A stretch of 64,000 nucleotides of DNA from Arenicola marina. Taxonomy: Eukaryota > Annelida > Polychaeta > Arenicolidae. The DNA lies in assembly GCA_964019135.1 (NCBI GenBank), contig CAXHSH010000416.1:248001-312000 (forward strand). Reading direction: 5' to 3'. A program made the translations under genes and the position numbers. Under the pieces are notes generated by a model that was not told the origin of the DNA, did not search any database, and saw only the letters and a list, made by a program, of their open reading frames with translations. This document shows positions 18,046-60,118 of the stretch, one piece after another; position 1 is the first letter of the stretch, and the number at the start of each line of letters is the position of its first letter.

Positions 18046-18196
18046 ATGGCGGAGCCAGAGGAGAAACGAGCGTGGGACTCGTGGCAAACAAAATGCCGCG
18101 AAATCCGCAGTTACCTCACAACAAAAGTCTATCCTGAGGGATCAAGTGAAAGTAAGAAGCGGTCTCTCAGGCGATTGTCTGCCAAATATCGTTTGG
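18046..18196 (+). CDS. Gene A exon 1: N-terminal region
   Basis: It codes for residues 1-50 plus one base. It begins MAEPEEKRAWDSW and ends with YPEGSSESKKRSLRRLSAKY and RLG. The YPEG...KR..RR pattern is the N-terminal signature I associate with KRBA2-like and other GIN-type integrases. The donor GTAAGT starts at 18197. The frame is open upstream to 17824, but that part overlaps the TIR element and lacks family similarity. Confidence 0.75.
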
Positions 18197-21100
18197 GTAA
18201 GTTCGAATGTAACCTACTTTCAATTTTTAAAGCAATAACTTAAACAGTTAAAGGGCCTTTCAACTCCCTTTAGAAGCGCGACTCAGGAGGTCGAAGCGTT
18301 GTCATATTCTTGCCCAGGGTTCACTAAACTAATGCTAGTCTGGTAAGTTAATGGTATCATGCATGTAAAACAAACCAGAAGAGTCTCTCAGGGGTTTCTG
18401 AATACCTACTGAGCTACTGTATTTCTGCTATCCTAAAAATCACACGTTAATGTTGTGACAGTCTGAAGGATCGACACTACACTACATTTTATAAATGTTA
18501 GACAGTGTCCATCCTTCAGACAGTAGACTGTCACGACATTAACGTATGATTTTCAGGTTACAATTCTGCATGCCTGGTAACAGGAGTAATACATATGCCA
18601 GGCCAAAGCGTGTCTTTATATTATTATGGAACAACGACCGTGTATAGGTGTAGTTGTTGACTTGAACGGTGAATGTGACAAGCACAGGTACAGTAAATCA
18701 TCAGTGGAGGAGGAGGGTGGTGGGGGGGGGGGGGGTAGGGGCCCGACACCGCATACAAAAGTCTTTTGTATATAGTGTGCCCTCCCCCACTTAGCGATTT
18801 TAGAGATGTTTAATAGAGAAATCCAGTGCAGTCTGCCACAAAATTTCACAAGTAGAGTCTATACAAATTATAATGTAAATAGATGTAATTGTATTGATGT
18901 TTTATCATGTAGATCTATATGTTGTTCAACATTCGCTGGTGCCAATATCATATTTGTACGCTCTACATGCTAGCACAGCTACAGGGCTGGGTCTATTTTC
19001 GTATAGTAAATATTGTTGTCAATTCGTAGTCCTAAGAGACTAGGACTGAGTGATTGAGCACTAGGTTTACCTAAACTTTTGAGGTTTGGAACACATGTTA
19101 AACTTTTAATTGTTACATTCTACAGCTAGGGTTAGCCTAAAAGTTCAGACATTACAGTATTGACACTTGTGCCTTTACAGTCACAGCATACAGTACAGTT
19201 ACAGACTGTACAGTCACAAGAACAAGTGTCAAGACTGTAACAGCTGAACTTTCAGGCTAAGCTAGGATATAATGTTTGCCCAGGACGTGGGACCTTGCTC
19301 ATAATGCAGCCTTGACCCACTACCCAGAGCGGATAAGCCAGGGAGGGGCATGCAACAGGGCTACCTTGATCTTATGTGCAAAACTGAAATTATATCAACT
19401 TTCATGTCATGATGGGGGGTGGAACTTCTTGGGTAGGGGGAGGGGGCTCCACAAGTAAGCCTCAAGTGAGGGGTGGAACTCCTTGAGTGCAACTTTCTTC
19501 CTTTTTCTAACATTTGCTTTTATGTCATCCTTGTGTGCAGAGCTGTTTCAGAGATCCTCCTGAGCTGTTCTCAAACTCTTCCACGGCAATATTTTCAAAC
19601 ATAGGCCAAATTGCTTTATTATATTTGACAGGTGTAATAATCCCTTAAGTCACAAAACACTATTTGAAGTGCTCTTGCATGGTTTCAGTAGCAGGAGTGA
19701 TAATCCCCTTGATCTATACATAAACCAATTACACATTCAACAAAGTTAAAAATCCCCAAACAATGATAAGTCTTCACACCTCCTCAGCAGCCTGCACACA
19801 GAGCCAGCGCCACATTGTATACCACTTTATATACCCCTCGCTTCGTTCACCTGTTCAAGTTTTAGAGGTGTTATTAGAAGGCTAAATTTCACTTTTTTTA
19901 TTTATAGTTTTTATATCATACTGTACTTGGTTACTACTGCAACTTAAGACCGCTAGAAGAGTGTTAACATGTTATGTAACTTAGATAAGGATGTTTAAGA
20001 ACAAAGTATAACTATAAGGCTAAATTCTCTTTCTCTTGCACGCAAATCATTTTTAGAAAAACATGCATGTGTCTCAGCATTTTGTTTTGGTATCAATCAC
20101 ATTGTTGGTCAAAGCAAGTTCTGACTGCCTGGAGTAACCATGACACTAATAGGTTTCCAGGATATTCAGTACATTGCATAAATACTATGGAAGTTGCAAC
20201 TTGTATAAAGCAAGTTATTCCTGATCCCCCACTTTTTTAGTGATGGTGGGGCCTTACTACAGTTACAACGTCCTGCATCATTCCCTGCATCTTTAACATT
20301 ATATAGCGTTATATAGGTATTTAATCTTTTTTCCGTCAAGAATCCTTTCTGTCTTTATATAAGTTATGAATAATATTGTTTTGTATTTAATGCAACAGCT
20401 ATAGCTACTATAGTAAGTTATTGCTGATCATTATGTATAGTTCTACTTTCAGGTGTGTTGCAACATTTTTGCCCCAGTGTTATGGCATCATGTGGAATTT
20501 CAGCTGACATGAATTGACAGCAGCTATGCTCATAAAGACATAAGGATCTTCTTTATTGTTTATTTGTGTTTACTGTATTTCATTATTTTTCAGTCAAACT
20601 AACTTAGGTTAAGAGTAATGTTATCATGTAATTTTTCCATAAGGATTTTTCCATCAAGAATCCTTTCTGTCTTTATATAAGTTATGAATAATATTGTTTT
20701 GTATTTAATGCAACAGCTATAGCTACTATAGTAAGTTATTGATGATCATTATGTATAATTCTACTTTCAGATGTGTTGCAACATTTTTGCCCCAGTGTTA
20801 TGGCATCATGTGGAATTTCAGCTGACATGAATTGACAGCAGTTATGCTCATAAAGACATAAGGATCTTCTTTATTGTTTATTTTTGTTTACTGTATTTCA
20901 TTGTTTTTCAGTCACACTAACTTAGGTTAAGAGTAATGTAATCCTGTAATTTTTCCATAAGGGTTTTATTTCTAAAGATCAGCCACTCGTCCAGATAGCT
21001 TTCCTATTATGTTATGCTTGAATTTCATTTGTAAGTCATGGCATTTTATCTTCTTAACACTCAATTATAAACATACTACCGTAATCCACTTAGGTGTGAC

Positions 21101-24100
21101 TGAGCGGCAGTATAGGCTTGTCTGTGTGAAGGTTCGAGTCCTTCCCTGGGTTACCCTAGTTTCATGTTATACATATGGAATTTTTGTGCATATTACCCAG
21201 TGGCACAGCAGACAAGCATTAGATTCCTTAAAAGTAGGACATACAAAAATACGAGCTTACGATAATTGTCAGTATGTGTTTGTTCCAGGCTCAGACGATT
21301 CCCTTTTGTATTGTACAAAAGGAAGGGAGCTGCGGGTGGTAGATTCACGGGCCGAGTGTCATGAACTATTCGAACAATTTCATGACAGTGCAATCGGGGG
21401 CCACTCAGGGGTCAACAAGACGATTGATGCCATAAGTCAGCGTTTTTATTGGCCCGGAGTGTCAGAGGACATCAAGAAAGGGGTAAGTAATACTGGCAGA
21501 ATGTACAATTTATACTATAAAATAGTATTACAAACAACTGTAATACTATATGTATTGGAAAGCCAATAGGAAAGCAGGTAGAGGTGGGGAGAGGAGGCGG
21601 CGGATGGTGCGGGGAGGGGGTGGTACATTCATACGAGATGCGCGAAAGCTTCTTGCTTGCTTCTTAGCTTTTTCCATGATATCATTAAGTGCAATGGGGC
21701 AGGCAATTATATGGTTGTCCATGGGTGCCAAACATTCCCGATCATATAGTTAAAACAAAGCTCTATAGGATGACTCATCGGTCAAATACTATTATGTTGT
21801 AGGTAATTATTCTATATTATTCTGTTATTTTCAATTCTTTGTCACAAAAATTAAATTTGCCAGTCATGCTCTACACTAACTCCGAACATAATAATAATAA
21901 TATTTCTTACTATAAACAAATCAGAATTATACAAAAACAGTTTGGTAAGGAGCAGAACTAATTTTTACTTGTCTCACGTGACATGAACGTGTCGCACCCC
22001 CCCCCCCCCCAAAGACGAACCACAAGACATTGTTATCTTAAAGAGCCACTCCCACGATTTCAACTACTCGAGTGGATAGACAACTCTACTGTATCTTGCA
22101 TACCAGTTCACTCAATATATTTTTATCTTTACCATATCAAAATATGATTTTGTGAGGGAGACTTAAATCGATATTTAATAACCATGTCAGATAAAACAAA
22201 TATTTCTGACAAAATGAGAAGTTCACATGCTCTGGTGACACATCTGCAAATAACTTATTGTTCCACAATAAGTTTTTTCTTTTTTTCAATATGATGCATT
22301 CTGACAAATCAGTTGCATTGCTTTTTCTCCAAACACTGAAAACGAAGCCTTCATGAAGAAGCTAGAAGCTGTGTCAGATAGTAGTTCCAATGTAAATCAT
22401 ATAGGTCCCTCCTATGCACAAAAGATTATTAATACAAATATGTATAGACATGTTAAAAACATAAATATAGAGCCATATTGGAGAATTTCATGTTTTCTTA
22501 TAAATTCTAACATCAAGATGAAAGCATTTTTGTATATTTTACCTTTCACCATACATATACATATCATAATGATATAAAGCTTCTATTTCCCTTAACGGCT
22601 TAAACGGTCAAGATTACAAAAATCACATATATTCCTGAATATATTAAAATATTTTTAGGAAATATATTGATATGGTAAAGATAAATCGATATTTAATAAC
22701 CATGTCAGATAAAACAAATATTTCTGACAAAATGAGAAGTTCACATGCTCTGGTGACACATCTGCAAATAACTTATTGTTCCACAATAAGTTTTTTCTTT
22801 TTTTCAATATGATGCATTCTGACAAATCAGTTGCATTGCTTATTCTCCAAACACTGAAAACAAAGCCTTCATGAAGAAGCTAGAAGCTGTGTCAGATAGT
22901 AGTTCCAATGTAAATCATATAGGTCCCTCCTATGCACAAAAGATTATTAATACAAATATGTATAGACATGTTAAAAACATAAATATAGAGCCATATTGGA
23001 GAATTTCATGTTTTCTTATAAATTCTAACATCAAGATGAAAGCATTTTTGTATATTTTACCTTTCACCATACATATACATATCATAATGATATAAAGATT
23101 CTATTTCCCTTAACGGCTTAAACGGTCAAGATTACAAAAATCACATATATTCCTGAATATATTAAAATATTTTTAGGAAATATATTGATATGGTAAAGAT
23201 AAATCGATATTTAATAACCATGTCAGATAAAACAAATATTTCTGACAAAATGAGAAGTTCACATGCTCTGGTGACACATCTGCAAATAACTTATTGTTCC
23301 ACAATAAGTTTTTTCTTTTTTTCAATATGATGCATTCTGACAAATCAGTTGCATTGCTCATTCTCCAAACACTGAAAACGAAGCTTTCATGAAGAAGCTA
23401 GAAGCTGTGTCAGATAGTAGTTCCAATGTAAATCATATAGGTCCCTCCTATGCACACAAGATTATTAATACCAATATGTATAGACATGTTAAAAACATAA
23501 ATATAGAGCCATATTGGAGAATTTCATGTTTTCTTATAAATTCTAACATCAAGATGAAAGCATTTTTGTATATTTTACCTTTCACCATACATATACATAT
23601 CATAATGATATAAAGCTTCTATTTCCCTTAACGGCTTAAACGGTCAAGATTACAAAAATCACATATATTCCTGAATATATTAAAATATTTTTAGGAAATA
23701 AATGCCTATTCAGAACAAACATAATTAAATAGAGCAACAAGTAATTAATCTGAAGTGTATTTGATTCTTTACAGTCACAGCTGGCACATCTGTACCTTTA
23801 CTGAGACAATTAGTAGCCCCAAAACCGGACACGTATGATACTCAAAATATCACTGTCAAAGAGTTGTTATTACAACTAATGCTATTGTTATTTTGTGAGG
23901 ATCTTGCTAGTATCCCTTCCAACCACCGGAGCCACCCTACATCTTGATAAGATAACATAGGATAACATTTTATTTAGCGTCGGTGTGTAAAAGTTAACAA
24001 TAGAACATTAGAACAGGTGCTATTGACCGACAATGATCAAATGACATGAGATGATGTACATATGATAATGAAAGTAACAACCATTCTGTCTTTAATATGA

Positions 24101-27100
24101 ACCTTTAATATGAACCTGTAATAAAGTAACAACCATTCTGTTTTTAATATGAACCTTTACCAGTTAGCTATGTTACATAATGTGCACGAGTTACAGTGAC
24201 ACATGAACTCCTCCGATGTTGACAGAATTGCTTTAAATTCCTTCGCAGATATGGCTGACTTTGTTCCATGTGTGAGCATATTCCACAATTTCTGCCTTGA
24301 TACTTCACTGAATTTTGGCCATAAGCTGTTGTCTTAACGCGTGGTATACATATAGTTGGCCCATTTTCAACACGTAATTACTTTCCTTTAAATGATGCAT
24401 GTCATGAAGGTAACTGGGCGTGATCTTGTTAGTGGTCTTGTAAAAATATAAAGCTATTTTGAGAGGCTGCTGTGCGCTCACCCCCCCCCCCCACCTCCTC
24501 CATTTTTGCTGGTTTCAAAACGGCGGCCACATCAGGACATCAGTTCTGCCGCCTCATCGGTTGGCATCCGTTGTATGTCATAATGGTCAAGATCACAGTG
24601 GATCATTGCAACTTCCCTATGAGACTTTACTGCCTTAGACGCCGCATATACCGCATAATGGTAATCAGTGTCTGCGTTAGCTACACGACGGTTTTGAGCT
24701 ATTGAGCGTGGAAAAAACATTACTTCGCCTAAGGACATTTACGACTTATGTGACCACGTTTTAGCCTCCATCTGGTTGAAGGTCAAATTTCAAGGTCATG
24801 ATCATGCGTAATAAGAACCTTTTTAAGGGGTCGCCCTTTTCTTCATATGGGACATAGCGAGACAAGACTTTGGATAAAATCATGGGGGGGGGGGCATACA
24901 ATATGGTTGACTTTTTTGTTACTGGGAAAAGGGTTTGAGGTAAATGAGGTCCAACTTCAGGTTGTTGCACAAAACGGCAGTTGCAGTAGCCAGGTTAAGG
25001 ATAGGTTTAGGGTTATAAACTTGGCTTGGCACAGCGTGAAGGAAATTGTTGCGCGAGCATCTGGGTCGCGTGATTAGACAGATTTTTAATCATCGGGTTA
25101 TCCGTCCTTCATGCACTTTTTTATTCAAGATATCTGCTTGTGACAAATGCCAGCGCATTGGGCCTCTTGAAAAAAATGAACCTCTGCAACAGATTAAGGT
25201 TTGTAGGGATGTAAGGTTTGTTCGAATGATTTTCAATGATGGACAATTATTTTTAATGCAACACGCCCTTTACTTTACGTCTTTTAATATTTGATGCCAT
25301 CTAGATACCGATAAAAAAAATTGGTTGGCAGCAGCGATGCAGATCCAGACGCGACCAAGGCCATTTATATTATAGAAGGCATTACGCTGACAAGAAAGTG
25401 TATTGCAGTGACTGTCAAACTTCTCATAGAAAAATGGAAAGAAACTAATTTAGTGTTCAGTGTATAACGCACTCAACGCAATTTAATATATTTAACAAGT
25501 GCGATACTTGTATCGAGCATTGTGTAAACTATTGTATTCGACTTTAAATAATTATAAATGGCGTTACATTGATCCTGTCTATCCGGGTATTGATGAAGGT
25601 AACTACATAATTCATTGTTATAGTTAAATTTCATTTAATTTTTCTTCATTTTCTTCTTTTTATCTCCAAAATGTATATTTCAAAACAGGTGACACAACCA
25701 TGGGAAATGCTGGGCGTGGACCCGGTCGGCCCTCTTATTACCACTGGAATTGGCAACAAGTACATACTGACTGCCACCGATTATTTCACAAAATGGGTTG
25801 AGGCATTCCCCATTCAGAATAAAACGGCAGACAGTGTTGTTGCTTGTCTGCTAGAGATTTTCTACAGACACGGGGCCTCGCAAGCCGTCCTGACAGACCA
25901 GGGCCGTGAGTTTGTAAACCAAGTGAGTAACGACACATAATTATCTGTATACTAAATGTTACCGTAATTGTTTATTTTATTTACTACACGTTTTAGTGCA
26001 AGAGGCTTCTTCGAAAGGATTCCTTGCACAGAATGTTATGCCGAAGACCCTACTCGCAGCAGTAACATAAATTTTTCTCAGGCGCTTTAGAACGTCATCG
26101 TAAGTGTACCTCGACCAGGTGTACAGTTGCTCGCTTAAAGGTCCTGAATAGATATAAACCACACTAAAATTGTACCTTTGTAATAGACAGTTGGGGATAA
26201 GTCTGTTGCAAGCTGATAAGGTGATGACAGCTGGCGAACTAGTGGACCGCTTAGTTAGCTAGTAGTATATCACTTGTGGACTTAAGAGGCATGAAAAATC
26301 CAACGACAGGTGCATTCTTTCTCCCTTTGTGGGGCAGATTAACTTTTGCCAAATTTTATGGCTTGATAAAAATTGTTATCTCTTAATTCGTTTGGCATGG
26401 GTTGGTTGGTAGAACGGCCTTGGAATGGTTAACTGACATGCAGGGTAGGGATGGTAGATGGCAGAAAGCGGGGCAGTGCTATATCTGAGGAATAAGTGTT
26501 GCAGATTCAGCACTGGTCCGTTTCATATAATATGGTGCAAAACGGTAATATGTTCCGTCACTGTTAGTAACCAAATAAGTGAAATGAAAAATTAGAAGCC
26601 CATTTGTTCACTTTTAGTGGGCGTCAGGGAATTACGCCGAATGATAAAGTATAGAGATTCTGGCCGCATTAAAAAAATCGTCAAAAATCCGTAAGGCAAG
26701 CTACTCTGCGATCTTTGCGCTTCGTTGCGATCTTTGCGCTTCGTAGTAGGGCTGAACTATCTCGAAAAACAACTGGACTCAAAAATAACACAGTGCGCAT
26801 AGTGTGAGCGCCAAGTTACTACAAACATCGATACCCCCCCCCCCCCTCCCTCGCTCTGTCCCCCAAGAAGTTAGTATAATCGAGTACTGCAAAAGTACAT
26901 GAACCTTATGGGAACCACGGTTCTGACACGCGCGATGTTGATACCTTGTTTTGTATGTAATCGTTGCACCAGTTACTAAACGATTATTGCCGAATGACAT
27001 AATGATAGTCTCAAAACTCTTGTGATTGAAGTATATTTTGACTATAGGGAAATCGACTCAAGGCATTTTCCTTTTTGGAATAAGCACTTCTCGCTCTTTA

Positions 27101-28108: not shown

Positions 28109-28287
28109 ATGGTAAGTGTAATTTCCCTCCACATTTGTGGATTTCCTTTAACGGATATTGCTTAAGCCCTGCCATACAAGAACTGTCAGCAAGGCAATAT
28201 CAGGGAATAATAATGAGAACAAATTTTCCGTGTAGGAGTTCTTAAGATTTCCACTGATGTTATTACTTCAAATCAAGTCTCGTTCAG

Positions 28288-28700: not shown

Positions 28701-28721
28701 AGTACTTTAGCAGGTATCCTG

Positions 28722-30000: not shown

Positions 30001-30505
30001 ACTTGCTCAACGAAATCTGAGAAATACTACCGATTCCTCCAACCTTGAACAAACTGGAGAATTGACCACTGTTTGGCTCTCACGATTAGTCAACCGGATA
30101 CAAACTTATCCACATGTATCCATGTCCCGCCTTATCAACGAGCCTCGTCGGTTTATTTTTTTTTAATTGATGCTCATCTTTTATTCCCAATCATCAATGT
30201 AACAAACGAATGTTGGCCTATCTTATGGTCGTGTTACCCTCTTGTCAATGTCATATCAGTAATTTTAATTAGTTATACTCATTTGTGGTCACAATATAGA
30301 TAATGTACTTTATTTTATTGTGTATAGGTTTATATATATATATTTTATTGAATTATATTATATATGATACATACACACATGTTACGATTTCATGCAAAAA
30401 GAAAAAGCAAACTACCGATGTTGTACATTTGAAAAACACAAGATTATATAAACACCAGTTCAACTTGACAGAAAATATTCTAGCAACGATTTCCCGCATT
30501 TTTGC

Positions 30506-32437: not shown

Positions 32438-32458
32438 CAGTTTGTAATCAGAATTTAT

Positions 32459-34740: not shown

Positions 34741-34762
34741 TCAATGTGCTATTATTCCACAA

Positions 34763-38250: not shown

Positions 38251-38299
38251 ACTTTTTCATCAGGGTCGTACCGATATTTAGGGGAAGTGTAATACTGGA

Positions 38300-49500: not shown

Positions 49501-52433
49501 CGACGACTAGAATTGACGTCTTTGGGACGTCTTACCGACCAGAATGTGCCCACTGGGTATCTTTGCTATGTATGTCGTCAGAGAACCCAACTTTTACCAT
49601 TACTTTCGTTTCTGTGACTACGTCCTGAAGACATCTTACCGAACACGTCTCTTCGACTGAAGATGTCTTTTAGACGTCTTCTTCGACACGTCTCTTCGAC
49701 GTTTTACTGAAGACGTATTTTAGACGTCTTTTTCGACACGTCTCTTCGACGTGTTACTGAAGACGTATTTTAGACGTCTTCTTTAACAAGTCATCAAGAC
49801 GTCCAAAAAAAGACGTCGTGCAGACTTCCACCTGGGACCAGCTGAAGACTGGTTCCCGACGACTAGAATTGACGTCTTTGGGACGTCTTACCGACCAGAG
49901 TGTGCCCACTGGGAGGATACATATTTTAAACACCATTGTGTAAAAAAATTGCCGATATAATTACCGTTCATTAGAATTAAGGTACGTATACGACGTCACG
50001 TGTATGTCAACACACGTATTAATTCGTGTGGAATGAAATGAATTCACGATGTATAACATCAGGTTGAGGAATGTAACCTATTGCGTTGCAATGACATAAT
50101 GTGTTGCAGGTCATCGATGCCTATCTCCATGTGGCTGTTTCGATGCACCCGGTGAGTTACCATTTTGATAGTATACTTCTTGAAACATTGTTGTTTATGC
50201 CCCCATAATATAGATGATAGTTCGAGCTCTCGACCAGATATGTAATCAACTATGCCATGACATTATTCGAAGTCAATCATAGGACTCACAAAGAAGCTAG
50301 CTAGTACGATTTTTCCTTTATGAACGTTTTATAATTTTCCTAAAGACAACATTGTTAGCGTACATATTTTCATTTAGATGTCAATATTTTTCAGAAATAC
50401 GACTACATCCCGAGTTCGGTTGCCGCGATGATTTTCAACTGGAGTCACCAGAAGAAACTTGGAAAAGTAAGAGAAATAAGCTGATAGCGGCGTTAAAGGT
50501 GTGGTCTACCAGCGTGGTAGCTATAAAAGAATGGTAATTTTATACGTATTGTTGCTCATTTGTTGTTCGTGCTCAGCTTCTTTACTTAATGTCCTTTTTT
50601 ATTGTACGTTTAATGACTCATCTGAAAGCTAACTGCGATCAATGAATAGTGATAAACATATTAGTCCATGCATCAGTAATTGTTTTCCGGCACAGGTACT
50701 CTCACACGGAAGACATTACGTCTGTGTTGTCAACAGGCATGGCCAGCACTGGGTCTTTGTCGTAAGTCTTGTTGTGCCCACTCATTAATAGGCCATTGCC
50801 TTCTTCTACATTTTTGACTGGTTCAAATGAAGGCACAGATGTCATGCAGTTCATATCTTATTCATTAGTATTGTTACACCGAAACATATTTGGTCCATCA
50901 TGAGTGTAATGTCTCATTATATACATATACTTGTATAATAGTTACGTCCTAGTTACGTCTTAACATCTATAATTTCCACATATTAAGTGTCAACAGTTAA
51001 GACCTCCCAAATCTAATTTCAGGCCATTGAAATGGTGCATCAGATGCTGACCATCATGGACCCGCTTGGTAGTAAACTCCCGCAATGTCGGGAACTGAAG
51101 GCAATGTTGACGTAAGTGCCCTTTGATGTTACTTACTTTAATGTTTTCTTAAGCGGCAATAACAAAATATCTAATCATAAAACTCATTCAATGCGGACCA
51201 TTAAGAGCCCTTCTTACTTTATTTATGGCATTGGCCTTTTATACTATTCTACATTCTAAGATTTATGCCCCTTATATTATTGTACTTTCGCAATACATAT
51301 TTTATAGAAAGTTCCTGACATTTCACTGTCTCCATGGGGGAGGGACGTGGAAGTTAAATGTTCCAGCCCATGCCAGGCAGCACGATGGCCGCTCGTGTGG
51401 CCTGTACAGCATGAAGGTTCTTATGCTTGTCTGCTATTCATAACGCATTAGTGCTTGTGCATGGCGATTAAAACTAACAATGAATATTAAATATGGATGG
51501 CAATTTATTCGACTCACTTCAGTCATGGCTTTAATTTGCTTTATTGCATAGAAGGTAACACGCCAGTGTGTGGGGGGATTTTTAACTAGACGCAAGCGCT
51601 TGTTGCTTAATATGTTTAAATATACAATATATATATGTCCACCAGCTCGCCGAGGCCTACATGTCGAAAAGGACAGTACTCCATGGCACCGACATGGAAG
51701 ACTTCAAAATATCGGTGGTCAATGAATTCATTGCCAATTCAGGTAGGTTTCTATGTCTTGGTCGATAACAGATATTTACTTACAGAGACAACAATATTCA
51801 GAGTAGTGGAATAAGGTAACATGCCATCAAACCTGTATATCATGTACCGGTATTTCACTTTCATTGTTTTCAATATGTACACCTAGATGTTTTACTCATG
51901 TATAGATGTTTACAATGCAAATTACAGTCGGTGCATAATGACAACATTCCGTTTGTCTACAGATAGTTGCATTGAAAGACTTTGCCGGCGTTGTGCAAGA
52001 CAAATTCCGCGCGGGTGCAAGTCCAGAAAGGTTAAATGGGTTAGTATATTTACCCTGTGTCGCAAATCTGGAAGGCGGTAATTCTATAAGGAACACTTTT
52101 TCACCTCCTGAAAACTGTTCGGAAAAACCCCCAAATATCTTATGCTTGGAGTGGGAGACATTCCCATTGAGAGACCAAGCGGCCGAAGCCCAGGCACCAG
52201 ATAAATGGCAACGCTCTTTAAAAGTACTTGTACATTTTCAGATCGGATGTGATGCGTGCGTCACATACTGGGTCCACCAATCGTGTTGCGTACCGGCCAA
52301 GAAGAGCAGCACCTTGTTTGTCTGCCCAGTGTGTAAAAGGTATTTTTTGCCGAATGTACCGAATGTAGGTTCATATGAAACTGCTACCATCAAAAAGGGT
52401 CCCCAACAAACCAATGTCTACCCAGATATATAA
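41245..52433 (+). CDS. Gene B: Ulp1-type protease with PHD finger, 5'-partial
   Basis: Sixteen exons by splice signal and phase: 41245-41294, 41767-41863, 42198-42305, 42376-42453, 42891-43001, 43505-43563, 44089-44419, 44741-44862, 50110-50151, 50395-50466, 50696-50761, 51023-51111, 51308-51416, 51646-51742, 51963-52039 and 52242-52433. All fifteen joins keep frame, giving at least 565 residues (counted from the first whole codon) with a TAA at 52431-52433. Layout: unknown N-terminal domain (1-167), acidic 22-residue repeats (about 178-256), C48 protease (about 280-460; H374, D391, Q432, C438) and C4HC3 PHD finger (484-533). It should cleave SUMO-like links and read chromatin, inferred from family. 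The exon before 41245 is missing. Exon 8 to 9 needs a GC-AG intron of 5.2 kb. Confidence 0.75.
44089..44419 (+). CDS. Gene B exon 7: acidic repeat linker
   Basis: It encodes DEGSDMSLES, then 22-residue units (DSDDGQVREETRARVDSPDL plus RP), then YPDLAYIQQQAQGWTCQQ. Two donors are possible. GTTAGC at 44410 would leave the wrong phase, whereas GTATGT at 44420 leaves one base and joins exon 8 in frame as SN-Y-IKHVWKSG. I therefore chose 44419 as the end. The linker is probably disordered and separates the N-terminal domain from the protease. Confidence 0.65.
44119..44357 (+). repeat. 66-bp coding minisatellite in gene B exon 7
   Basis: Units start at 44119, 44185, 44251 and 44317 (exact 66-base spacing), with three full copies and a partial fourth. 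Copies 2 to 4 are nearly identical while copy 1 is diverged. As 66 is a multiple of three and the repeats are GC-rich, all three plus frames and one minus frame stay open. Only the acidic frame joins the flanking exons. Confidence 0.9.
44741..51742 (+). CDS. Gene B exons 8-14: Ulp1/C48 cysteine protease domain
   Basis: Exon 8 gives TKSLEAVNDFVPDE and exon 9 VIDAYLHVAVSMHP, the N-terminal C48 signature. Exon 10 holds KYDYIPSSVAAMIFNWSHQK. Exon 11 holds HYVCVVNRHGQHWVFV (His374). Exon 12 holds MLTIMDPLGSKL (Asp391). Exon 13 holds NVPAHARQHDGRSCGLYSMK (Gln432, Cys438). Exon 14 gives the C-terminal helices. His to Asp spacing of 17 and Gln to Cys spacing of 6 equal those of yeast Ulp1 (H514, D531, Q574, C580), a strong independent check on the exon model. 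Donors of exons 10, 11, 12 and 14 are GTAAG- or GTAGG-like; exon 13 uses a weak GTTCTT. Confidence 0.8.
44863..45101. other. Start of the long gene B intron 8 (or alternative 3' end)
   Basis: The frame of exon 8 remains open after the proposed GC donor as AIHLILNELTFFDFAAYFIQ and stops at 44928-44930. If no GC-AG splice is used, this would be an alternative terminus for a shorter protein of about 340 residues lacking the protease. Confidence 0.4.
45102..45310. mobile_element. End fragment of a CCCAGTGGGCAC element
   Basis: CCCAGTGGGCAC at 45102-45113 is the reverse complement of GTGCCCACTGGG found at 49546-49557 and 49902-49913. It is followed by GACGTC-rich text and about four units of a 26-base repeat, CAGACGTCCCACGTACGTCA plus TAATT. 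This looks like one end of a non-autonomous TIR element with internal tandem repeats. Confidence 0.6.
45311..45694. other. Intron 8, no supported feature
   Basis: The stretch between the CCCAGTGGGCAC fragment and the first CCATGG cluster is single-copy in appearance. It contains no ORF or inverted repeat that I can support. Confidence 0.4.
45695..45770. repeat. Small CCATGG palindrome cluster
   Basis: TACCATGGTTTACCATGGTA, TATACCATGGTATAGCATGG and TTACCATGGTATACC follow each other. Each is built from the palindrome TACCATGGTA. A larger cluster of the same motif lies at 48710-49050. Confidence 0.8.
45771..46545. other. Intron 8, C-rich stretch without gene
   Basis: C runs are found near 45973-45989 and 46372-46390. 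Overlapping ORFs on both strands (for example 46172-45687 minus) are created by GC-rich text and the CCATGG cluster. No family resemblance is seen. Confidence 0.45.
46560..47085. repeat. Large inverted duplication, arms about 175 bp
   Basis: Left arm, about 46560-46735 (from CGAGTGCCTATTCC to CTCGCCCGCACG), is matched in reverse complement by about 46912-47085 (from CGTGCGGGCGAGATTTATGG to GGAATAGGCACTCG), with scattered differences. The spacer is about 175 bases. Both arms carry mirrored ORFs, which explains similar peptides on opposite strands (RARFMETALKK and RARFMEAALKK). It is probably a foldback element or the product of an inverted insertion. Confidence 0.8.
47086..47202. repeat. Perfect 35-bp inverted repeat with extended arms
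   Basis: 47101-47135 (AGGCGCTCAGATTTGTTGAC, then AAACAATACCCCAAG) is the exact reverse complement of 47151-47185 around a 15-base loop. Outside, CCTATACTATAG (47086-47097) pairs with CTATAGTATAGG (47191-47202) with short unequal gaps. It directly adjoins the right arm of the larger inverted duplication. No mismatch in 35 pairs implies recent origin or conversion. Confidence 0.9.
47209..48700. other. Intron 8, unassigned stretch
   Basis: A possible exon follows TTGTTACAG at 47900-47908 (IKSGEILWQRCKRNLQVNAR and on to a stop at 48109-48111), but it does not fit the phase or family of gene B. The rest is AT-rich with no clear repeat. Confidence 0.4.
48710..49050. repeat. CCATGG palindrome cluster with inverted arms
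   Basis: More than fifteen copies of TACCATGGTA-like palindromes are packed here. On top of this, CCATGGTGTTTTGGCGATGG (48858-48877) is mirrored by CCTTCGCCAAAACACCATGG (48963-48982), giving a larger hairpin over about 48848-48990. The same core motif forms the small cluster at 45695-45770. Confidence 0.85.
49199..49913. mobile_element. Two 356-bp direct copies ending GTGCCCACTGGG
   Basis: TATCTTTGCTATGTAT starts at 49202 and again at 49558 (356-base offset). The copies are nearly identical. Each holds four to five units of AAGACGTATTTTAGACGTCT with CGACACGTCTCTTCGACG and ends in GTGCCCACTGGG, at 49546-49557 and 49902-49913. The ends are the complement of the start of the fragment at 45102, so all three belong to one TIR family. 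GACGTC is itself palindromic, so the array is hairpin-rich. Confidence 0.75.
51963..52433 (+). CDS. Gene B exons 15-16: PHD finger and C-terminus
   Basis: Exon 15 (51963-52039) gives SCIERLCRRCARQIPRGCKS, then RKVKW. Choosing the GTTAGT donor at 52040 keeps the Trp that precedes IGCDAC in exon 16. Ligands are C484, C487, C505, C508, H514, C517, C530 and C533, giving CX2C-X17-CX2C-X5-HX2C-X12-CX2C, the canonical C4HC3 PHD pattern. After VCPVCKR the frame reads on for about 30 residues (YFLPNVPNVG to NVYPDI) to TAA at 52431-52433. PHD fingers commonly bind histone H3 tails, but the peptide-binding residues were not analysed. Confidence 0.75.
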   Translation: MVALKDFAGVVQDKFRAGASPERLNGLVYLPCVANLEGGNSIRNTFSPPENCSEKPPNILCLEWETFPLRDQAAEAQAPDKWQRSLKVLVHFQIGCDACVTYWVHQSCCVPAKKSSTLFVCPVCKRYFLPNVPNVGSYETATIKKGPQQTNVYPDI

Positions 52434-52497
52434 AACTAGCGTCCCGAATATATAGCTTATATACTTCAGCAAATAACACGATAATCAACATAATACC

Positions 52498-52909
52498 CCA
52501 ACAAACATGACGCAATCGGACCAGTACTGGCCCGATGCAGGCTGTCCGATACTGCTGGTGCCGGCCCAATGCTGGCACCCGGTTTGGGGCCGGTAACCTG
52601 GTAACACCGTGCACAGCGGCGCAGAAATTGGCCGATGGTGGCACGCTGGTATGGATTGGTAACGGGCCGGTACTGAGCCGGCAAGTGATCGACGCTGGCC
52701 CGATTGCGGCTCGCCAGCAGTATATGCACGTAGCTCGGATTAGGGCTATTCTACATCGTCTTGTTACGATAATATAAACGGCAAAAAAGAACATTTCATT
52801 CTTTATTTCAACCATAAGCAGCAACCGTTACTGACCGGCCATGATGCCAGCATCTCCGTAATAAGCCGGACCGCTGCCAGTACTGGCCCGTTACCGTCAT
52901 GTTTGTTGG
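52498..52909. mobile_element. 412-bp MITE with 15-bp TIRs
   Basis: CCAACAAACATGACG at 52498-52512 matches CGTCATGTTTGTTGG at 52895-52909 in reverse complement. Close to both ends lies CCAGTACTGGCCCG, which contains the palindrome CCAGTACTGG. The inside is GC-rich and non-coding. The element starts 65 bases after the gene B stop codon, so it may sit in the 3' UTR. No convincing target duplication was seen. Confidence 0.75.
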
Positions 52910-53014
52910 AACGTGATTATATACGTACTATATTTATTCCGGGCTGCACCTTCTCCTTTCAGATCGTAACACTGACGAGGCCATATCAACACCAACGACG
53001 TCAACCTGTGACGC

Positions 53015-53777
53015 CGCACAGATCATCAGTATATTGCACACACGGACCCGCTATTCAAATATCTCAAAATCTTGAAACTAAAAGATATACATACATTACA
53101 ACAATTTAAATTTTACCACCAATTCATAAATAATAACCTACCAGCTTACTTTCTCGAACACATGACATTCCTCAAGATAAATGACTTACATAGTTATAAC
53201 ACAAGACAAAACCACACATTTCATATCCCGACTACCAAACACAAATTCTGTCAACTTACCTTAAGACATAGTCTCATCCGGCACCTAAACAACACCCCTC
53301 CGCATATCATTAGCAAAGCAACCACACATTCGCTGAAAAGTTATGCGTCTCATATTAAGGACCATTTATTAATCGGTTATAAGGAATGTTGTGAAGCCTC
53401 ATATTGTTATGTCTGTCACGCACGCACGGAATAGGTATTTAGCTTTCTTAAACTTTTACTTTGGATCGTCTGTGTTGTAGATATTCGAAATACCATATTT
53501 GCTGTTGTAAATAAATTATATAGTGCATATGAACTCAGAAACAATATGTTAGAATCAGTGTCATTTTTAGCGTAACGTAACTGGCTTGTGTAACTGGCGT
53601 TACGTTTTTTTGTTTTTTGTGTGTGTTTTTTTAGGTGGCTCACATGCTAGCGACTGCCTGGCAGTCTTAATGTGAGTCTCCTCGGTCAGGCAACCCTATC
53701 TAATTGTTGTGTGTGTTTTTCTTTTTCTGTTTGTTTTGTTATGTTTGCTTGACCCAATAAAACGATTCTGATTCTGG
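53015..53777 (+). mobile_element. 3' end of a second L2/CR1-group LINE
   Basis: The ORF region (about 53024-53434) reads HTDPLFKYLKILKLKDIHTL, LHSYNTRQNHTF and CCEASYCYVCHARTE, parallel to the C-terminus of the LINE at 13.1-14.9 kb (HSEPLFKQFSILKLADIM, LHNYNTRH, CHLVNCYICKND). The 3' UTR holds the two-stem hairpin (53639-53676), AATAAA (53756-53761) and a short GATTCT tail. The copy is strongly 5'-truncated. Confidence 0.85.
53639..53676 (+). other. LINE 3' UTR two-stem hairpin, copy 2
   Basis: Outer stem CTCACAT (53639-53645) pairs with ATGTGAG (53670-53676). Inner stem GACTGC (53652-53657) pairs with GCAGTC (53661-53666) around CTG. The internal loop is GCTAGC and TTA, identical to copy 1 at 15136-15171. 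Stem bases differ from copy 1 on both sides in a compensating way. Confidence 0.8.
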
Positions 53778-55366
53778 TGGTAAGTTGATCGTAGAGAGCA
53801 TATACAGTTGGTACGTGTCAGGGTTGCTTATTAAGCCCCTTGCTATTTGCTTTTTGCATTTCTTTGTTAGAATATTATTAACCATAACATAAATTTAGCC
53901 AACACGAAGGTAGTTGTTTTTCGAAGAGGTAGTAGAACAGGTTGCTCAAACAAAACGAGAGATGGTATTAGTAACTAGGGGCACAAATGTGTACATGCTA
54001 AATTCTTTAGACGCCAGTCGGGAATCGACTGTAGTTTTTATCAGAAATGTGTGCGCTTACAATCATAGTGTTTACGTATTCTATATACCTTGTTCTGACA
54101 TCAATAAAGTGTGTTAACACTGGTCTTTTCGGTTATATTTTCGCGAAGAAATGTTGGGGCACACGACTTTTCCGGACTAACCGTCCACTATATTTGTTTT
54201 TGGCGCATGCCAGTACCTGGGAATGCAACTTAGTTCCCCGCTCCGTTAGCATATGACTCTCCGCAAAAAGGGCGTTAATTGTCAGTCGCTCACTTTAAAC
54301 TTAACGACAACAGCAGCGCCTTCTTTCACGGGTAATTAATGGTTACAAAGTTTGAACCCAATCATATTTAATCAGATACAACACATATTATCATATACAA
54401 CACAGAAATACTTGAATTTAATCTCCAGGCGTTGCAGAATCACGGCTAAATATCGGCACCGGGGGTTATGTCCACCGGGGGTTTTGTCCGTTCCCCGTCA
54501 ATTATCACCTTATCCCGCGCATAATATCGCTTTCGGGTGCGGCGGGCTATCTGGCTTGGTGCCAACGGTAATATTTTTCCCAACGCATTATCGCCCGAAC
54601 CGTCATCAAAGCAAACAAATCCCGTACTGTCTCGCGCCCACAACTTCCCATCAGTAGCAAGAGAACGAACTCTGCCCGGGGAACCATGCCTAAAACCACT
54701 GATAACACGCTGCTCTTAACATCAGTCACAGCAGTATCCAATTATACAGGATAGTTAAGCGGACTACACGTCAATTCTATAGAACCAACCAGGAAGTCAG
54801 GCAGATTTTATCCACTCAAGGTAGTAGTACTACGTTAAATGACGAACAACGGACGGGAAACAGCCCCCATACTCAACCAAACTTTTTTTTGTTTTACTGA
54901 ATCAATCTATGAGCTTGGGCCTTAGTTTTACTGTGTTTTACTAGTTTTAGCCGCAATTTTGGTATTCTGTACTTGATGCACAATAATTGCACAGAAAGTG
55001 TTTAAATATTTTTAACATTTATGTCCCGTTATTCAGTAGCTCCCGGTCTCAATTGATGTCAATATAATTATCTATATTATTTCTGCCCAATGTCTACCTT
55101 CTGCCTGCTACTGTTTAACGTATAAAACAAAATAATGTCATACTGTTATTTCTTTCGCTTATTACTACGAATGATAAAAGCTACAGTCGTTTACCGACTG
55201 GCGTCAAAAACAACTTTGCATGGACGCTGTTGTGCCCCTAGAAAGCGGGCTTGCCTGGGGGCACTTGCGCCAAGCCTCTCTGGCTCAGCCGATCTCTGGC
55301 TCAGTTCAGTTAATTTCAGAAGACAGTAGACGGATTTTTTTTACTCTGAGGATCCCGCCTGTTATC
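53778..55366. other. Intergenic stretch before gene C
   Basis: Short ORFs on both strands (53914-54117, 54352-54657, 54741-54547) show no motif. The stretch should contain the gene C promoter and 5' UTR. The in-frame ATG at 55220 would add 49 residues, which I do not favour because of its weaker context (TTTGCATGGA). Confidence 0.45.
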
Positions 55367-58300
55367 ATGGCACTAATCACATTGGCTGCGCTAAACGAGT
55401 CACAAAATGAGATACATGGACCAATTCGGCTAACCGTGTGTGAACACTCCAGTCAAGGGTGGACGACCCTGGATTCCGCATCGAATTGTCTCAGAATGGC
55501 AGTCGGCGATGAGACATGCGCGAAAAGAGCCATTCTGTACAACGCGTCATTGGGAGAGACTATGGCGGTTGGACAGACCGTCATGGTCATGGACTTTTTG
55601 CACAAAAATTCCACCATATCCATACTGAAGACGACAAAAGTGTACAGGTAAGTGGCACTGACTTGTACTTGTAAGAACAATTATAACTTGTAAACGTTGG
55701 ACAGCTTCGGCATGGCTATGGTCTGTAGCGAAGTGTAAAAAATCTGTTAGACCTGTAAATTTCCTGAACATCATACGTTTCCATGACGGGTCAGGTAGGT
55801 TTAGTCCGTGGGCCCACTTGGATCGCAGTCTGTTTTAACCGCTGGATGATTTGAACACAGGGGCTCCTGTGACTTGACAGTGGAAGTGTGGAGGGGAAGG
55901 GGGTGTAGGGTTTGTGTATGGAAACCCCTGCAGGGACGGATCTAGAAATTTGCCAAGTGGGGGGGGGGGGGGTGATCATTGAAAACTTGCGCCCGGGGGA
56001 GGGGGGTCCTCTGTGAAAAATGCGACAGGGGGGGGGGGGCGTTGCTCGGAGAAGCCGACTTTAGCAGTGTATGTTCAGGTTCCCAAGGGGGGGGGGTCTC
56101 CCTAACCCCCTTCCCCCTTGGATCCGCCCCTGCCCTGTATGCACCTGCCTCTCGCAGAAAGCGCAGCATGTTATTTCCGTCAACCAGTTTAAAGTGGGTC
56201 ATGGGAAAAGGTCATGTTTGTTTTGACGCTTTATTTGCGTTTTGCAAAGGTAAATAGGCGGGCGGAAGATGTACCTTTGATTACCCATTTGATAGCCTTT
56301 GATAGGACGGGGCCAGTCGTTTATTATCATCAATTTGTACGTGCTCCGAGGCCCTGCTCTCCCCTATCGCTAATTGGCCTGAACAAAACAACAACCGTTT
56401 GATCGGTTCGCCCTTCACCGTCCGCTTAATCCCTAATCCCCTCTGCCCAATACCACCCCCCCCCCCCTCCCCCCCGCCTATATTAGTATTAAAATTGTGT
56501 GTTCTGTGAGGAACAAATGGGTATATGTTTAGTTAATTATACCCATGAGGCAGGAAGCCGATACGTCAGCCCCTCCCCCACCCGGCTGCCGCGCATTCGT
56601 CGAGGCGCAGACTAATCCGCTTGCTCGCGGCTCGACCCACCGCCCCCCCCCCCCTCCCACCACGCCCTGCCCACAACACCCTATGCCCCTTCCCCCCCAA
56701 CCCCCTTAAGCCCTTGTGCCGTTTTGCTGTCTGGCCATTATGACCATACACCGTGGTGTGTGGGGGTGGAGAGGGGGTGACAAAGTCTGTATATGACGTA
56801 TTGTACAATTAACTAGTGATAGACTGAAAAGACGTGTCACCTTGACAGTTAAAAATGGTTTGAGTACTGGGGGTGGGGGGTTGGAGAGTCCATAGAGACC
56901 TATGGGTGCCGAGGTACCGTCAGGCAGGAAAGGAACCTCAGGGGGTGAGGATTGACATGAAAAGCTGTGATCCCATGTGCTATGGTACGGAATGTATGGG
57001 AAAAGTGAAATAGTAAATCATGAACTGTGTCATTGGAAAAAATACCCCCTTTTGCATAACATATTGAATGATTGTAATATGGTGGGAGCAGCAAGTGTGA
57101 TGATTACGTGTAAATGGGTAGAGTAATGGTATGGGATGGTCACTGTGTTATTCATATGAATAGACTATTAAAGGCCCGAGAGAAGGACTGAACAAAATGA
57201 TATGGTCTCCCTAGCTGTATTCTGGTGAATGTGCCGTAATTACCGTGTGTTACATGTGGCAGAGATTTTAATATTGAAAATATGAGGAGGGAAACAATAG
57301 CTGACAGCATTGTGCATGTATGCATGAAGCTTTTGTATCCATGAGACAAGGAAATGGTGGTCTATGAGTTGCATAAATTTACTTTCAGTTTATGAGTAAA
57401 GGGAATTAATTGGTATTTTCGTGCGTAATGGCCACTGACAAGGTGTGATAAAATCCACGGATGGTTCAATGGTCTGTTTATATAAGTTCTTGAATGCTGG
57501 TTATTTTTTTCAAGTTTTGTTCAAAGTGGAACTACATTTTGTTATTTTTGCTGATGGATATTTTGATGTGTGATATGTAACGAAATACATAGCTGCTGTA
57601 GGTATTTAATGATTTCACTGGTAATTGTGATGTAGGTGCAGTTCTCAGAAGCTACCGGAGGCTATCCATGAACAAGGCAAGGGCTTGGCAAGCAGGGCGG
57701 TAAATGCCATCGTCTCCATATTGCAAGTGAATGCAATGCCCATCAAGTCGACAGTGTCGACCGAAGGGTCAGTTATTAACGTAAGTTTATAAGGACGAAT
57801 TGCACTTGGTTGAGAGATATGTCTGATGGCCATTGAAGTCAGTGAATTCATTTGAGACTGTTTGAGCAAAAAGTAAGTCTTAATGTGGTAGTTAGGACTG
57901 TTAAATATGTTAATGTGTTCGGCGTGTTGGCGAAATGGTTTTTGTCATGTCCTGGACAGTGCAGAGTACGCAATGTATATATTATGTTTTTATCAATGCA
58001 ATAGCATATATCTAATTAGTGGTAGGTATTGAAATAGATTTGGAAATGTCCGGTAACATTTGTACCAGTATCACCTGGCAAGTGGTAGTCTTTTCATTGT
58101 TGTGGAAATGTCTTGTTCATGTGCTAGTGATGTTTCCGCGTGTAGTCCGCTTAAGTGCAAAATTGGACACTGTGGTAATTGGTGTCTGGCGCTCGCGGGA
58201 CGTATAGCGCTGTTTTCGCATGTCATCCGCCTAATTGCAAAGTTGGACACTGTGTGTAGTGCGCTAGACTGTGATTTTGCAAACTGTACAGTTGCATACT

Positions 58301-60118
58301 GCATGTAGTGCGTTTAACTGTAAACCTGGATACTGCGTGTAGTCCGCGTAACTGTAAATTTGCATACTGTACAGTTGGATACTGCGGTAATTTGTGTCTA
58401 GCGCAGTTTCGCATGTAGTGTGCTTAACTATAAAGTTGGATACTGCCTGTAATTGCTTAAGTGGAAAGTTGGACGCTGCGGTTACCGATGGCTAGTGCTG
58501 TTTCCGCATACAGTACGCAACTGGTGTCTGACGATGTTTCTGCACGCAGTCCGCTTAACTCTAAAATTTGACACTGCAGTAACTGGTGTCTAGTGGGTGT
58601 GATATGTTGTTGCTTGGACGACGGTTTGGGCATTGCTACCAGCTTGCCACAGATTATCTAATATGGCGTTGAATTCGGCGATAAGGTGTTGGGACTAATG
58701 TTATTAGTGTTGCACCCAGCCAGGTATTGGTGACCATGCGGGAAAAGCACCGAGCGACAGTTCAAGGCGACTGCTTGCGCCAATGTGCTGGTGCAGGCAG
58801 TGGGTGCATCGGATGCATAAGTGGGACAGACAGACAGATATACACCTTCATTTTATTAGTACAGAATCTTATGTGGTTTACTAATTGTCAATATTGTATT
58901 GCTATATACATATTTTTGTCTGGTTGACTTAGATGTGACCTAGGATGAAGTAAATGGCATGGAGGAGCAACTAGGAATCTTCCACTTGCTTTCCTATTTG
59001 TGTGATGCTTAAGTGAACTATATGTGTTGTTCTGTTGTGCCTTGTTACATACATGTAATGCAGCATGACAGAGCTACGTTGTGTTGTAATAAGTGAAGTG
59101 ACGTTAGTAAGCCTTTTGCTATTTCAGGACAGTCCTGTGAAGATAGTTAACGCCAAAAGAAAGGACGCGGCCGTGAAGGAGATGATTTTGGAGGACGCGT
59201 CAGGAACTGTGAGAGTCGCCCTTTGGCGGTCGGCTACCACTGTGCCAGTGGCGGCCGGGGACCGTGTTCGCGTGAAAGACGCAACACTCACCTATTCTAA
59301 TTACTTTAAGGCACCAGTGTTAACGGTGAATCGTCCTGACCACGTCGAGGTAAGCCTGATGATGTTCTTTGATGTTGTCTCTGGATGATCGTTTGGTATA
59401 GTGCTTCTTTGTAAGGGCAATGTATTAATGGAATTGCGGGAGTTGAAGACGTGAGGCATTGTACGGTTTATGTATACATTTGCATTGATAAGTATACCTA
59501 AGTAAGTAGCATGGGATTGTCTCGTTCCTAATGTTATTGTCCTACTTGCATATGCCATAGTCTGGATAACAAATGTGTACCTGTTATAGGTGCTTAAAGC
59601 GGAACGAGGACACGCTGTTGCGACGGTGCTTGGCGTGATGCCCGTGATGAAGAGTGACGATGTAGCTGTCCTAATAGATGAAGCCGGCAAAGAAAAGGAG
59701 ATGGTGGCTAGCAGAAGGCTTTTGGCCCCGTTCGGCAACATGGACGAAATCCCCTCACTGTTGCCGCTCTACAATATTGTCATGGAGTACGAGGGGAACC
59801 GGTTATGTGCCATGAGTGAGGTGAGATGGAGTGTTTGATAGCTGTTTCGATGTTAGTCAAATGCATGTTGCATTACTAGCACATTGGTAGGACGAGAACT
59901 ATCCATAAAGCGGAATCAATGGGATAAAGTATGGGAAGTTGTGTTTTTGTAGGTAATTAGCAGCATCAGAATTTAGGATCGCATACGATAATTTTGTGAC
60001 ATTGTGTAGTACTTTACTGGAAGGCATATATGTTAAGTAAGGCGTACAAGGGATCTTTTTTTCACGAGAAAATATAAATTCACAGGTTGCTGAGGACGGA
60101 CCGGAGGATGTGCTGTGA
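55367..60118 (+). CDS. Gene C: OB-fold-like protein, five exons, 303 residues
   Basis: Exons: 55367-55647, 57636-57780, 59128-59349, 59590-59820 and 60086-60118. Donors are GTAAGT, GTAAGT, GTAAGC, GTGAGA; acceptors end TGTAG, TTTCAG, TTATAG, CACAG; phases are 2, 0, 0, 0. The total of 912 bases gives 303 residues and TGA at 60116-60118. Start chosen for the atcATGG context. Exon 3 (residues 143-216) reads SPVKIVNAKRKDAAVKEMIL, DASGTVRVALWRS, AGDRVRVKDATLTYSNYF, which has the strand pattern of an RPA-like OB fold. Exon 1 (IHGPIRLTVCEH, GQTVMVMDFLHK) may be a second. It probably binds single-stranded nucleic acid. No exact family is recognised; RPA1/RADX-like or a transposon accessory protein are options. 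Confidence 0.7.
55930..56120. repeat. G-tract cluster in gene C intron 1
   Basis: Runs of 9-13 G occur near 55961, 56029 and 56089, embedded in text such as GGATCCGCCCCTGCC and GGGACGGATCTAG. That text resembles an interspersed repeat end. On the minus strand it gives proline-rich chance ORFs. Further C runs lie at about 56455-56477 and 56641-56653. Confidence 0.6.
56121..57635. other. Gene C intron 1, remainder
   Basis: Apart from the C runs, the stretch is AT-rich with GGTATG-like motifs and no ORF I can support. Exon 2 of gene C starts at 57636. Confidence 0.45.
58125..58600. repeat. Degenerate repeat of about 60 bp in gene C intron 2
   Basis: Variants of GTAGTCCGCTTAACTGTAAA, TTGGACACTGCGGTAA and GGTGTCTAGCGCTGTTTCCG recur seven to eight times with 55-70-base spacing. 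Copies are strongly diverged, which suggests an old minisatellite. ORFs crossing it on both strands are by-products. Confidence 0.65.
59128..59349 (+). CDS. Gene C exon 3: OB-fold core
   Basis: The exon is 74 whole codons, phase 0 on both sides, and so forms a self-contained domain exon. Pattern: VKIVNAKRKDAAVKEMILED (beta 1-2), SGTVRVALWRSATTVPVAAG (beta 3 and loop), DRVRVKDATLTYSNYFKAPV (beta 4) and LTVNRPDHVE (beta 5). The order 'change in the meaning of a base sequence' strand, W-containing strand, G-D-x-V and N-Y/F aromatic resembles ssDNA-binding OB folds. Structural prediction would be needed for certainty. Confidence 0.65.

What the first reader, a model, noticed from the sequence alone, without database searches (positions are those of the whole stretch)
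18046..60118. Three intact same-strand intron-rich genes with transposon-type domains
Gene A (integrase), gene B (Ulp1-type protease plus PHD finger) and gene C (OB-fold-like) are all on the plus strand. All keep frame over 5, 15 and 4 introns, while intervening LINEs, LTR pieces and repeats are mostly broken. Integrase plus cysteine protease plus a possible ssDNA-binding protein is an unusual combination for host neighbours. It would make sense as cargo of a very large Ginger-like DNA transposon, or as a domesticated module. I recall Ginger elements carrying accessory domains with their integrase but cannot verify the exact set here.
Basis: partly seen in the sequence, partly recalled or inferred. 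Interest (0 to 1): 0.8.

Follow-up and report, generated by a model that had tools for sequence, protein, structure and literature searches.

The report
Three unrelated neighbours, not one transposon
Three real spliced genes (a Ginger1-type integrase, a SUMO-protease-like gene and a single-strand-DNA-binding-like gene) sit side by side on one animal scaffold, but relatives of each lie apart elsewhere in the same genome, so they look like chance neighbours in repeat-rich DNA rather than one giant mobile element.

Summary
The observation largely holds. A (18046-28108), B (41245-52339) and C (55220-60118) are spliced, same-strand reading frames with 5, 15 and 4 introns. A is an integrase, B a Ulp1-type protease, and C carries an RPA-type OB fold. 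A's frame stops before the GPY/F region, B has no visible start, and B's PHD finger gets no Pfam support.

The shared-mobile-unit reading fails. No convincing terminal inverted repeats were found. A's near-identical second copy (scaffold C613) shows no B or C match. B and C were duplicated without A in a ~35 kb inverted duplication. Among the listed matches outside this scaffold, A-type (58% or more), B and C relatives never lie within 4.9 Mb of each other.

The Ginger guess is partly right. A belongs to a dispersed Ginger1-type family, and three of A's 120 listed relatives carry a protease tail homologous to B's. One ancestral Ginger1 gene split into A and B remains possible but unlikely. C is RPA-like with no Ginger link; a Helentron lies in the same arm.

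Selection tests show past constraint on all three. Ordinary, with one open lead.

The parts
18046..18196 (+). Gene A exon 1 (ATG; N-terminal part)
   Evidence: several relatives in the own genome match aa 6-54, close to this exon border
21289..21482 (+). Gene A exon 2 (HH half of the H2C2 zinc finger)
25130..25198 (+). Gene A exon 3 (CC half of the zinc finger)
25689..25922 (+). Gene A exon 4 (rve; first two catalytic D)
27430..27536 (+). Gene A exon 5 (catalytic E)
27940..28108 (+). Gene A exon 6, ends in TAA
   Evidence: the C613 copy has no stop at this codon
28343..28750 (+). GPY/F-like relic of A, beyond the stop; the stretch before it is in another frame
41245..44862 (+). Gene B exons 1-8: 41245-41294, 41767-41863, 42198-42305, 42376-42453, 42891-43001, 43505-43563, 44089-44419 (22-aa acidic repeats), 44741-44862 (GC donor)
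   Evidence: weak Nrf1_DNA-bind match, E 0.0068, below cut-off
50110..51742 (+). Gene B exons 9-14 (Ulp1 protease): 50110-50151, 50395-50466, 50696-50761, 51023-51111, 51308-51416, 51646-51742
51963..52339 (+). Gene B exons 15-16 (PHD-like Cys-rich end): 51963-52030, 52242-52339 (or on to a stop at 52433)
   Evidence: no PHD in Pfam
55220..55647 (+). Gene C exon 1 (N-terminal domain, fold not shown)
57636..57780 (+). Gene C exon 2
59128..59349 (+). Gene C exon 3 (RPA-type OB fold)
59590..59820 (+). Gene C exon 4
60086..60118 (+). Gene C exon 5 (TGA)
38266..64000 (.). Right arm of an inverted duplication (runs on to C244:321317, 9.3 kb past the window); holds B and C, not A
45102..49913 (.). 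4.8-kb TIR element inside a B intron; empty site in the C3:17.75-Mb copy

Best explanation
A, B and C are three independent genes of different families that ended up beside each other in repeat-rich DNA. A is one copy of a dispersed, intron-bearing Ginger1-type transposase family. It keeps the zinc finger and the DDE residues, but it stops before the GPY/F part and shows no ends, so it is probably immobile. B is a member of a small intron-rich family (about nine loci, both scaffold arms counted) encoding a Ulp1/SUMO-protease-like enzyme with a His-Asp-Cys site, acidic repeats and a Cys-rich tail; it probably cleaves SUMO or ubiquitin-like modifiers in the nucleus. C is a member of an RPA-like family and probably binds single-stranded DNA. 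B and C share a 35-36 kb inverted duplication; A lies in its spacer. Shown: gene structures, domains, copies, linkage and past purifying selection. Inferred: enzymatic activity, ssDNA binding, immobility and present expression.
For: Gene models with open frames. Domains. A: 16 further loci at 58% identity or more, 13 of 16 with a match ending within 5 aa of an A exon border (my count); near-identical copy on C613. B: copies at C3:17.75, C3:48.7-49.2 and C10:12.75 Mb plus both C244 arms. C: relatives on C20, C3, C7, C49, C584, C1 and C4. Nearest same-chromosome distances outside C244 among listed matches: B to C 4.9 Mb, A-type (58% or more) to C 13 Mb, A-type to B 18.5 Mb (positions). No convincing TIRs. 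Inverted duplication without A. dN/dS 0.38-0.49 for B (five paralogs outside the arms) and 0.21-0.40 for C (four); A 7 of 207 synonymous vs 4 of 714 non-synonymous, stop codon left out.
Against: A within 13 kb of a B locus has a chance of about 3e-4 per A locus (computed after the fact), and both are Ginger1-like in sequence and in order. Gypsy-like integrases, common here, do lie near some relatives: C3:49128776 about 15 kb from a B copy, and a 36% match at C584:3115 about 13 kb from a C relative. The genome searches score only the best candidates, so unseen linked copies cannot be excluded. The C244 arms and C613 may be allelic or misassembled. No expression data.
Confidence: 0.77

Rival explanations
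1. A and B are the integrase half and the protease-PHD half of one ancient Ginger1-type gene, inflated by nested insertions; B later spread by itself. C is unrelated.
For: Same strand, Ginger1 domain order (integrase, Ulp1, PHD) as in PMC2836005. Of 120 listed relatives of A, 3 carry a protease homologous to B's (P0034 3.5e-17, P0092 9.6e-6, P0035 0.002). B's protease region finds no Ulp1/SENP among solved structures at E up to 10, and B has no start exon of its own in view.
Against: A on C613 shows no B match. No A-type locus of 58% or more is listed on chromosome 3, where most B copies lie. A finds nothing in the fetched loci of B and C relatives (best E 0.58 at a C locus, 8.7 at a B locus), though these stretches are short. 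Ginger1-type protease matches elsewhere (8, 8) are not near A-type loci; the nearest integrase match of any kind that I saw is 44% identical, C14:5411627, about 31 kb from a decayed protease match. B's N-terminal half matches none of the 120. The one donor I looked at by hand near 28718 has the wrong phase for B's first exon (read, no separate call).
Confidence: 0.12
2. One very large Ginger-like DNA transposon carries A, B and C as cargo.
For: Three same-strand open genes between repeats; Ginger1 affinity of A and of B's protease.
Against: No convincing TIRs; listed relatives unlinked; duplication and second copies do not follow an A-C unit; size and gene number outside the known range.
Confidence: 0.02
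3. B and C were spread by the Helentron in the same arm, by gene-fragment capture.
For: A Helentron-type Rep/helicase with OTU and endonuclease parts lies 7.8-13.7 kb past C. At C3:31.67 Mb a C-like exon 2 with one stop lies 0.4 kb from a Helentron Rep match. Several C relatives are single exons.
Against: Of the fetched loci searched (the eight 10-kb C244 pieces left out), only L032 matches the Helentron; most of those loci show 1.5 kb of flank. The 10 kb around the C3:17.75 B copy has no match. The left arm's outer edge cuts the Helentron.
Confidence: 0.07

Closest known systems
Ginger1 DNA transposons (PMC2836005; passages, section 8)
   Same: A: H2C2 finger, DDE core, introns, dispersed copies. 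B: protease of the kind fused to Ginger1-type integrases.
   Different: No TIRs or target duplication found; A and B are separate; GPY/F out of frame; 42 kb instead of 2.6-7 kb.
Gin-1/Gin-2 and Imagin, host genes from Ginger1 (PMC12863088, passages)
   Same: Multi-exon integrase genes; Imagin lacks inverted repeats and is under purifying selection.
   Different: Those are sets of orthologs kept between species, and Imagin is single-copy and lost its DDE; A keeps DDE, belongs to a dispersed family and carries a stop. Orthology across species was not testable here.
Ulp1/SENP proteases (Peptidase_C48)
   Same: His-Asp-Cys site and fold family.
   Different: No detectable similarity to solved Ulp1/SENP chains by phmmer; acidic repeats and Cys-rich tail.
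Replication protein A and related OB-fold proteins
   Same: Exon 3 matches RPA, TEBP and SSB chains, the last two weakly.
   Different: Only one OB fold shown; the N-terminal domain matches no RPA.

Membership tests
Ginger1 transposon | H2C2 zinc finger and DDE core | tested here: met
   the three acidic residues placed by eye on the alignment
Ginger1 transposon | Groups with Ginger1-type integrases, not Gypsy | tested here: met
   16-row group with support 90/96, drawn as open; 7 own-genome Gypsy-like rows outside, midpoint root, 23 rows. The 15 comparison rows were chosen from A's own hits and none is labelled Ginger1 by its source; one carries Ulp1 and one OTU.
Ginger1 transposon | GPY/F motif in frame | tested here: not met
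Ginger1 transposon | 40-270 bp TIRs | tested here: not met
   (ungapped search with exact 12-base seeds, hits of 20 bp or more at 80%; flanks 12000-18100 and 28100-36000 for A alone). One 21-bp pair, score 15, shuffled maximum 16; the shuffles used a shorter minimum length, so they are not strictly alike.
Ginger1 transposon | CCGG/CCGT target duplication | tested here: not met
   2 CCGG-TGT words upstream, and 7 ACA-CCGG/CCGT/ACGG words downstream; no matching inverted repeats beside them
Ginger1 transposon | C-terminal Ulp1 or OTU in the same protein | tested here: not met
   A ends at 307 aa; B is 13 kb away
Domesticated Ginger1 gene (Gin/Imagin kind) | Orthologs conserved between species | not testable with these tools
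   no relatives of this genome are held
Peptidase_C48 | Score over curated cut-off and His-Asp-Cys site | tested here: met
   27.6 vs 20.7 bits; alignment to P0034
PHD finger | Pfam PHD match | tested here: not met
   E up to 10; Cys/His spacing seen by eye only
RPA-type ssDNA-binding protein | RPA-type OB fold | tested here: met
   3dm3 2.2e-6, 6.7e-5 with a four-row profile; by sequence only, no Pfam family over cut-off
RPA-type ssDNA-binding protein | Several OB folds | tested here: inconclusive
   no RPA match for exon 1; model of exon 1 pLDDT 36

The most novel reading that the evidence does not exclude
A and B are the split halves of a Ginger1 transposase: integrase and SUMO-protease parts became separate, intron-rich genes under selection, with the protease half amplified as a host gene family on chromosome 3.
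Probability: 0.12. Interest if true: 0.6.

Novelty: new member of a known kind. Interest (0 to 1): 0.27.

Why it matters
It removes a tempting candidate for a giant gene-carrying transposon and shows how a same-strand cluster of transposon-like genes can come about without being a unit, next to an inverted duplication. It leaves one testable lead: a protease family, apparently under past selection, whose closest relatives found here are fused to Ginger1-type integrases.

Tried and rejected
Tried without result: B and C against 5.8 billion proteins gave no hit at E 0.001 (for B only the 7995 candidates sharing most words were scored). Structure of C exon 1 from one sequence: pLDDT 36, not used. 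Profile of C exon 1 against solved structures: four leucine-rich-repeat kinase chains and a phage fibre, taken as chance. Upstream search with window 9500-21300 was swamped by LINE copies. Five paper searches: for Ginger1 with Ulp1, nothing closer than PMC2836005 in the listings.

Rejected: A lacking half its zinc finger. My first model missed exon 25130-25198; searches used it, and it was corrected. Clenterotox match of an N-terminal ORF (17.3 bits, below cut-off, no stretch passing): chance. 'Integrase beside Ulp1 is common here' as a base-rate argument: only 4 C48 matches in the genome by single open stretches, so I did not use it.
Full report
What is there. The window is C244:248001-312000 of an 867-Mb genome in 762 contigs, an animal by its gene and repeat content. 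I could not name the species. Gene A has six exons from ATG 18046 to TAA 28106-28108 (307 aa), with the H2C2 finger split over exons 2 and 3. Gene B has sixteen exons, 41245-52339, open for 531 codons, with one GC donor; its first exon begins at an acceptor, so its start is not in view, and its last exon can run on to a stop at 52433. Gene C has five exons, 55220-60118, 352 aa. Pfam gives rve and Integrase_H2C2 for A (284-aa first model) and Peptidase_C48 for B, all over cut-off, and nothing over cut-off for C. C exon 3 matches archaeal replication factor A at 2.2e-6, and with three relatives also other RPA chains (0.0039 to 0.084) and, weakly, TEBP and SSB chains. B's PHD finger is not supported by Pfam; a weak Nrf1_DNA-bind match lies in its N-terminal half (E 0.0068, below cut-off).

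Are the genes real? Against paralogs, coding change is skewed to synonymous sites: B dN/dS 0.49, 0.38, 0.49, 0.39 and 0.41 (five paralogs outside the C244 arms; the arm pair gives 0.56 on 3 changes), C 0.33, 0.40, 0.21 and 0.22 (four; the arm pair has no coding change). Fisher one-sided p was 0.017 to 1.2e-4 for the four B pairs tested and 0.027 to 3.4e-7 for the four C pairs. A against its C613 copy: 7 of 207 synonymous, 4 of 714 non-synonymous, p 0.004, stop codon left out. Many paralogs are themselves decayed or partial: C3:60.35 and C3:54.11 of C have 2 and 1 stops, six of the eleven comparisons hold one exon with a frame-changing gap, and some splice dinucleotides are lost; flags a stop in the C7 place as well. 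The left-arm B has one stop and the left-arm C lacks exon 3. So the frames were selected in the past; present function is not shown.

A is Ginger1-like. The best of 377 relatives (120 listed) are integrase-like proteins, most of the named ones from fish and called 'Gypsy retrotransposon integrase-like protein 1' (44-51% among the first 15), and a Tegillarca protein at 63% over 57% of A. In a 23-row tree A groups with such proteins (90/96, drawn open) apart from seven own-genome Gypsy-like integrases, pairing with the Tegillarca protein (83/83); some branches are long and comparison rows were chosen from A's hits. A's N-terminal 138 aa finds, besides C244 and C613, 16 places at 58% or more, 13 of 16 with a match ending within 5 aa of an A exon border (my count, 150 of 1425 candidates scored), so A belongs to a dispersed intron-bearing family. 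Its GPY/F-like stretch lies past the stop, with a frame change before it. The C613 copy has no stop at that codon, but its tail has length differences and a 10.9-kb insertion.

B's protease. BLASTP of B's protease part to P0034, an integrase plus Ulp1 protein, gives 31% over 178 columns, E 7e-20 in a single comparison. Among all 120 listed relatives of A, 3 match B's protease: P0034, P0092 and P0035. No Ulp1/SENP chain of the PDB is found at E up to 10. This makes B's protease Ginger1-like. It does not prove that A and B were one gene: B's N-terminal half finds nothing in the 120, and the genome's other Ginger1-type protease matches (8 each) are not near A-type loci.

Linkage. B matches 102 places, falling by my count into about nine loci: both C244 arms, C3:17.75, five at C3:48.7-49.2, and C10:12.75 Mb. 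C matches 25 places: both C244 arms, C20, C3, C7, C49, C584, C1 and C4. Among these listed places outside C244 the nearest B-C distance is 4.9 Mb, A-C 13 Mb and A-B 18.5 Mb on the same chromosome, taking A-type as 58% or more. Gypsy-like integrases, of which this genome has many (1687 candidates), do lie nearer: C3:49128776 about 15 kb from a B copy, and a 36% match at C584:3115 about 13 kb from a C relative. C613 (577 kb) has A at 99% and 98% DNA identity in the exon 4 and exon 2 pieces, yet no B or C match is listed on it. Collinearity with C613 is seen at window 17976-20300, for exon 2, and over 24544-31098 with gaps, beyond which C613 runs into a 93-bp repeat. C613 may be an allele or a duplicate.

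The inverted duplication. C244:203876-about 240032 and C244:286266-321317 are inverted arms, 95.9-99.6% identical in the long blocks and lower in minisatellites; B and C are in both, A is in the 46-kb spacer. The left arm's outer edge falls inside a Helentron-type gene set with DUF6570, OTU, Helitron N-domain, PIF1 and an endonuclease domain. A haplotype misjoin cannot be excluded.

No transposon ends. Inverted-repeat searches between the flanks of A..C, B, B..C and C gave no pair of 20 bp or more at 80% identity; A alone had one 21-bp pair scoring 15, where shuffled sequence reached up to 16. The search was ungapped with exact 12-base seeds, and the shuffles allowed shorter pairs than the real search, so the control is rough. 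CCGG/CCGT words beside TGT or ACA occur, but without matching inverted repeats.

How it most likely works. A: a relic transposase gene, DDE kept, probably unable to move its own copy. B: a nuclear SUMO/ubiquitin-like protease (inferred). C: an ssDNA-binding protein (inferred).

Known before? Ginger1 with Ulp1 or OTU tails, and Gin/Imagin host genes, are in print (PMC2836005, passages and section 8; PMC12863088, passages). My paper searches listed no work with a three-gene Ginger unit in its title or abstract start; they cover only the held open-licence library.

Noticed in passing
45102-49913: 4.8-kb element with 12-bp TIR CCCAGTGGGCAC and an AG duplication inside a B intron; the C3:17.75-Mb B copy has the empty site.
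   Followed up: partly
about 16619-17962: 1.35-kb repeat with TIR GTGCGTTCGATTGA, many copies up to 99%; C613 looks like an empty site.
   Followed up: partly
44089-44419: B's acidic 22-aa repeat exon; in the chromosome 3 cluster and C10 copies such repeats lie in open frames of up to 861 and 921 aa.
   Followed up: partly
C244:315912-321862 (outside the window): Helentron-type ORFs on the minus strand; at C3:31.67 Mb (L032) a C-like exon 2 lies 0.4 kb from a related Rep piece.
   Followed up: partly
C244:243979-245922 (outside the window): Minus-strand PHD-finger ORF and DUF6589 ORF in the spacer of the inverted duplication.
   Followed up: no
8712-9467: Harbinger-type DDE_Tnp_4 transposase ORF (the superfamily name is recalled).
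   Followed up: no
22164-23700: Three tandem units at 518-bp spacing, 98-99% alike over the 300 bases compared, in A's second intron.
   Followed up: no
2118-6466: Plus-strand ORF series without a clear Pfam family.
   Followed up: no
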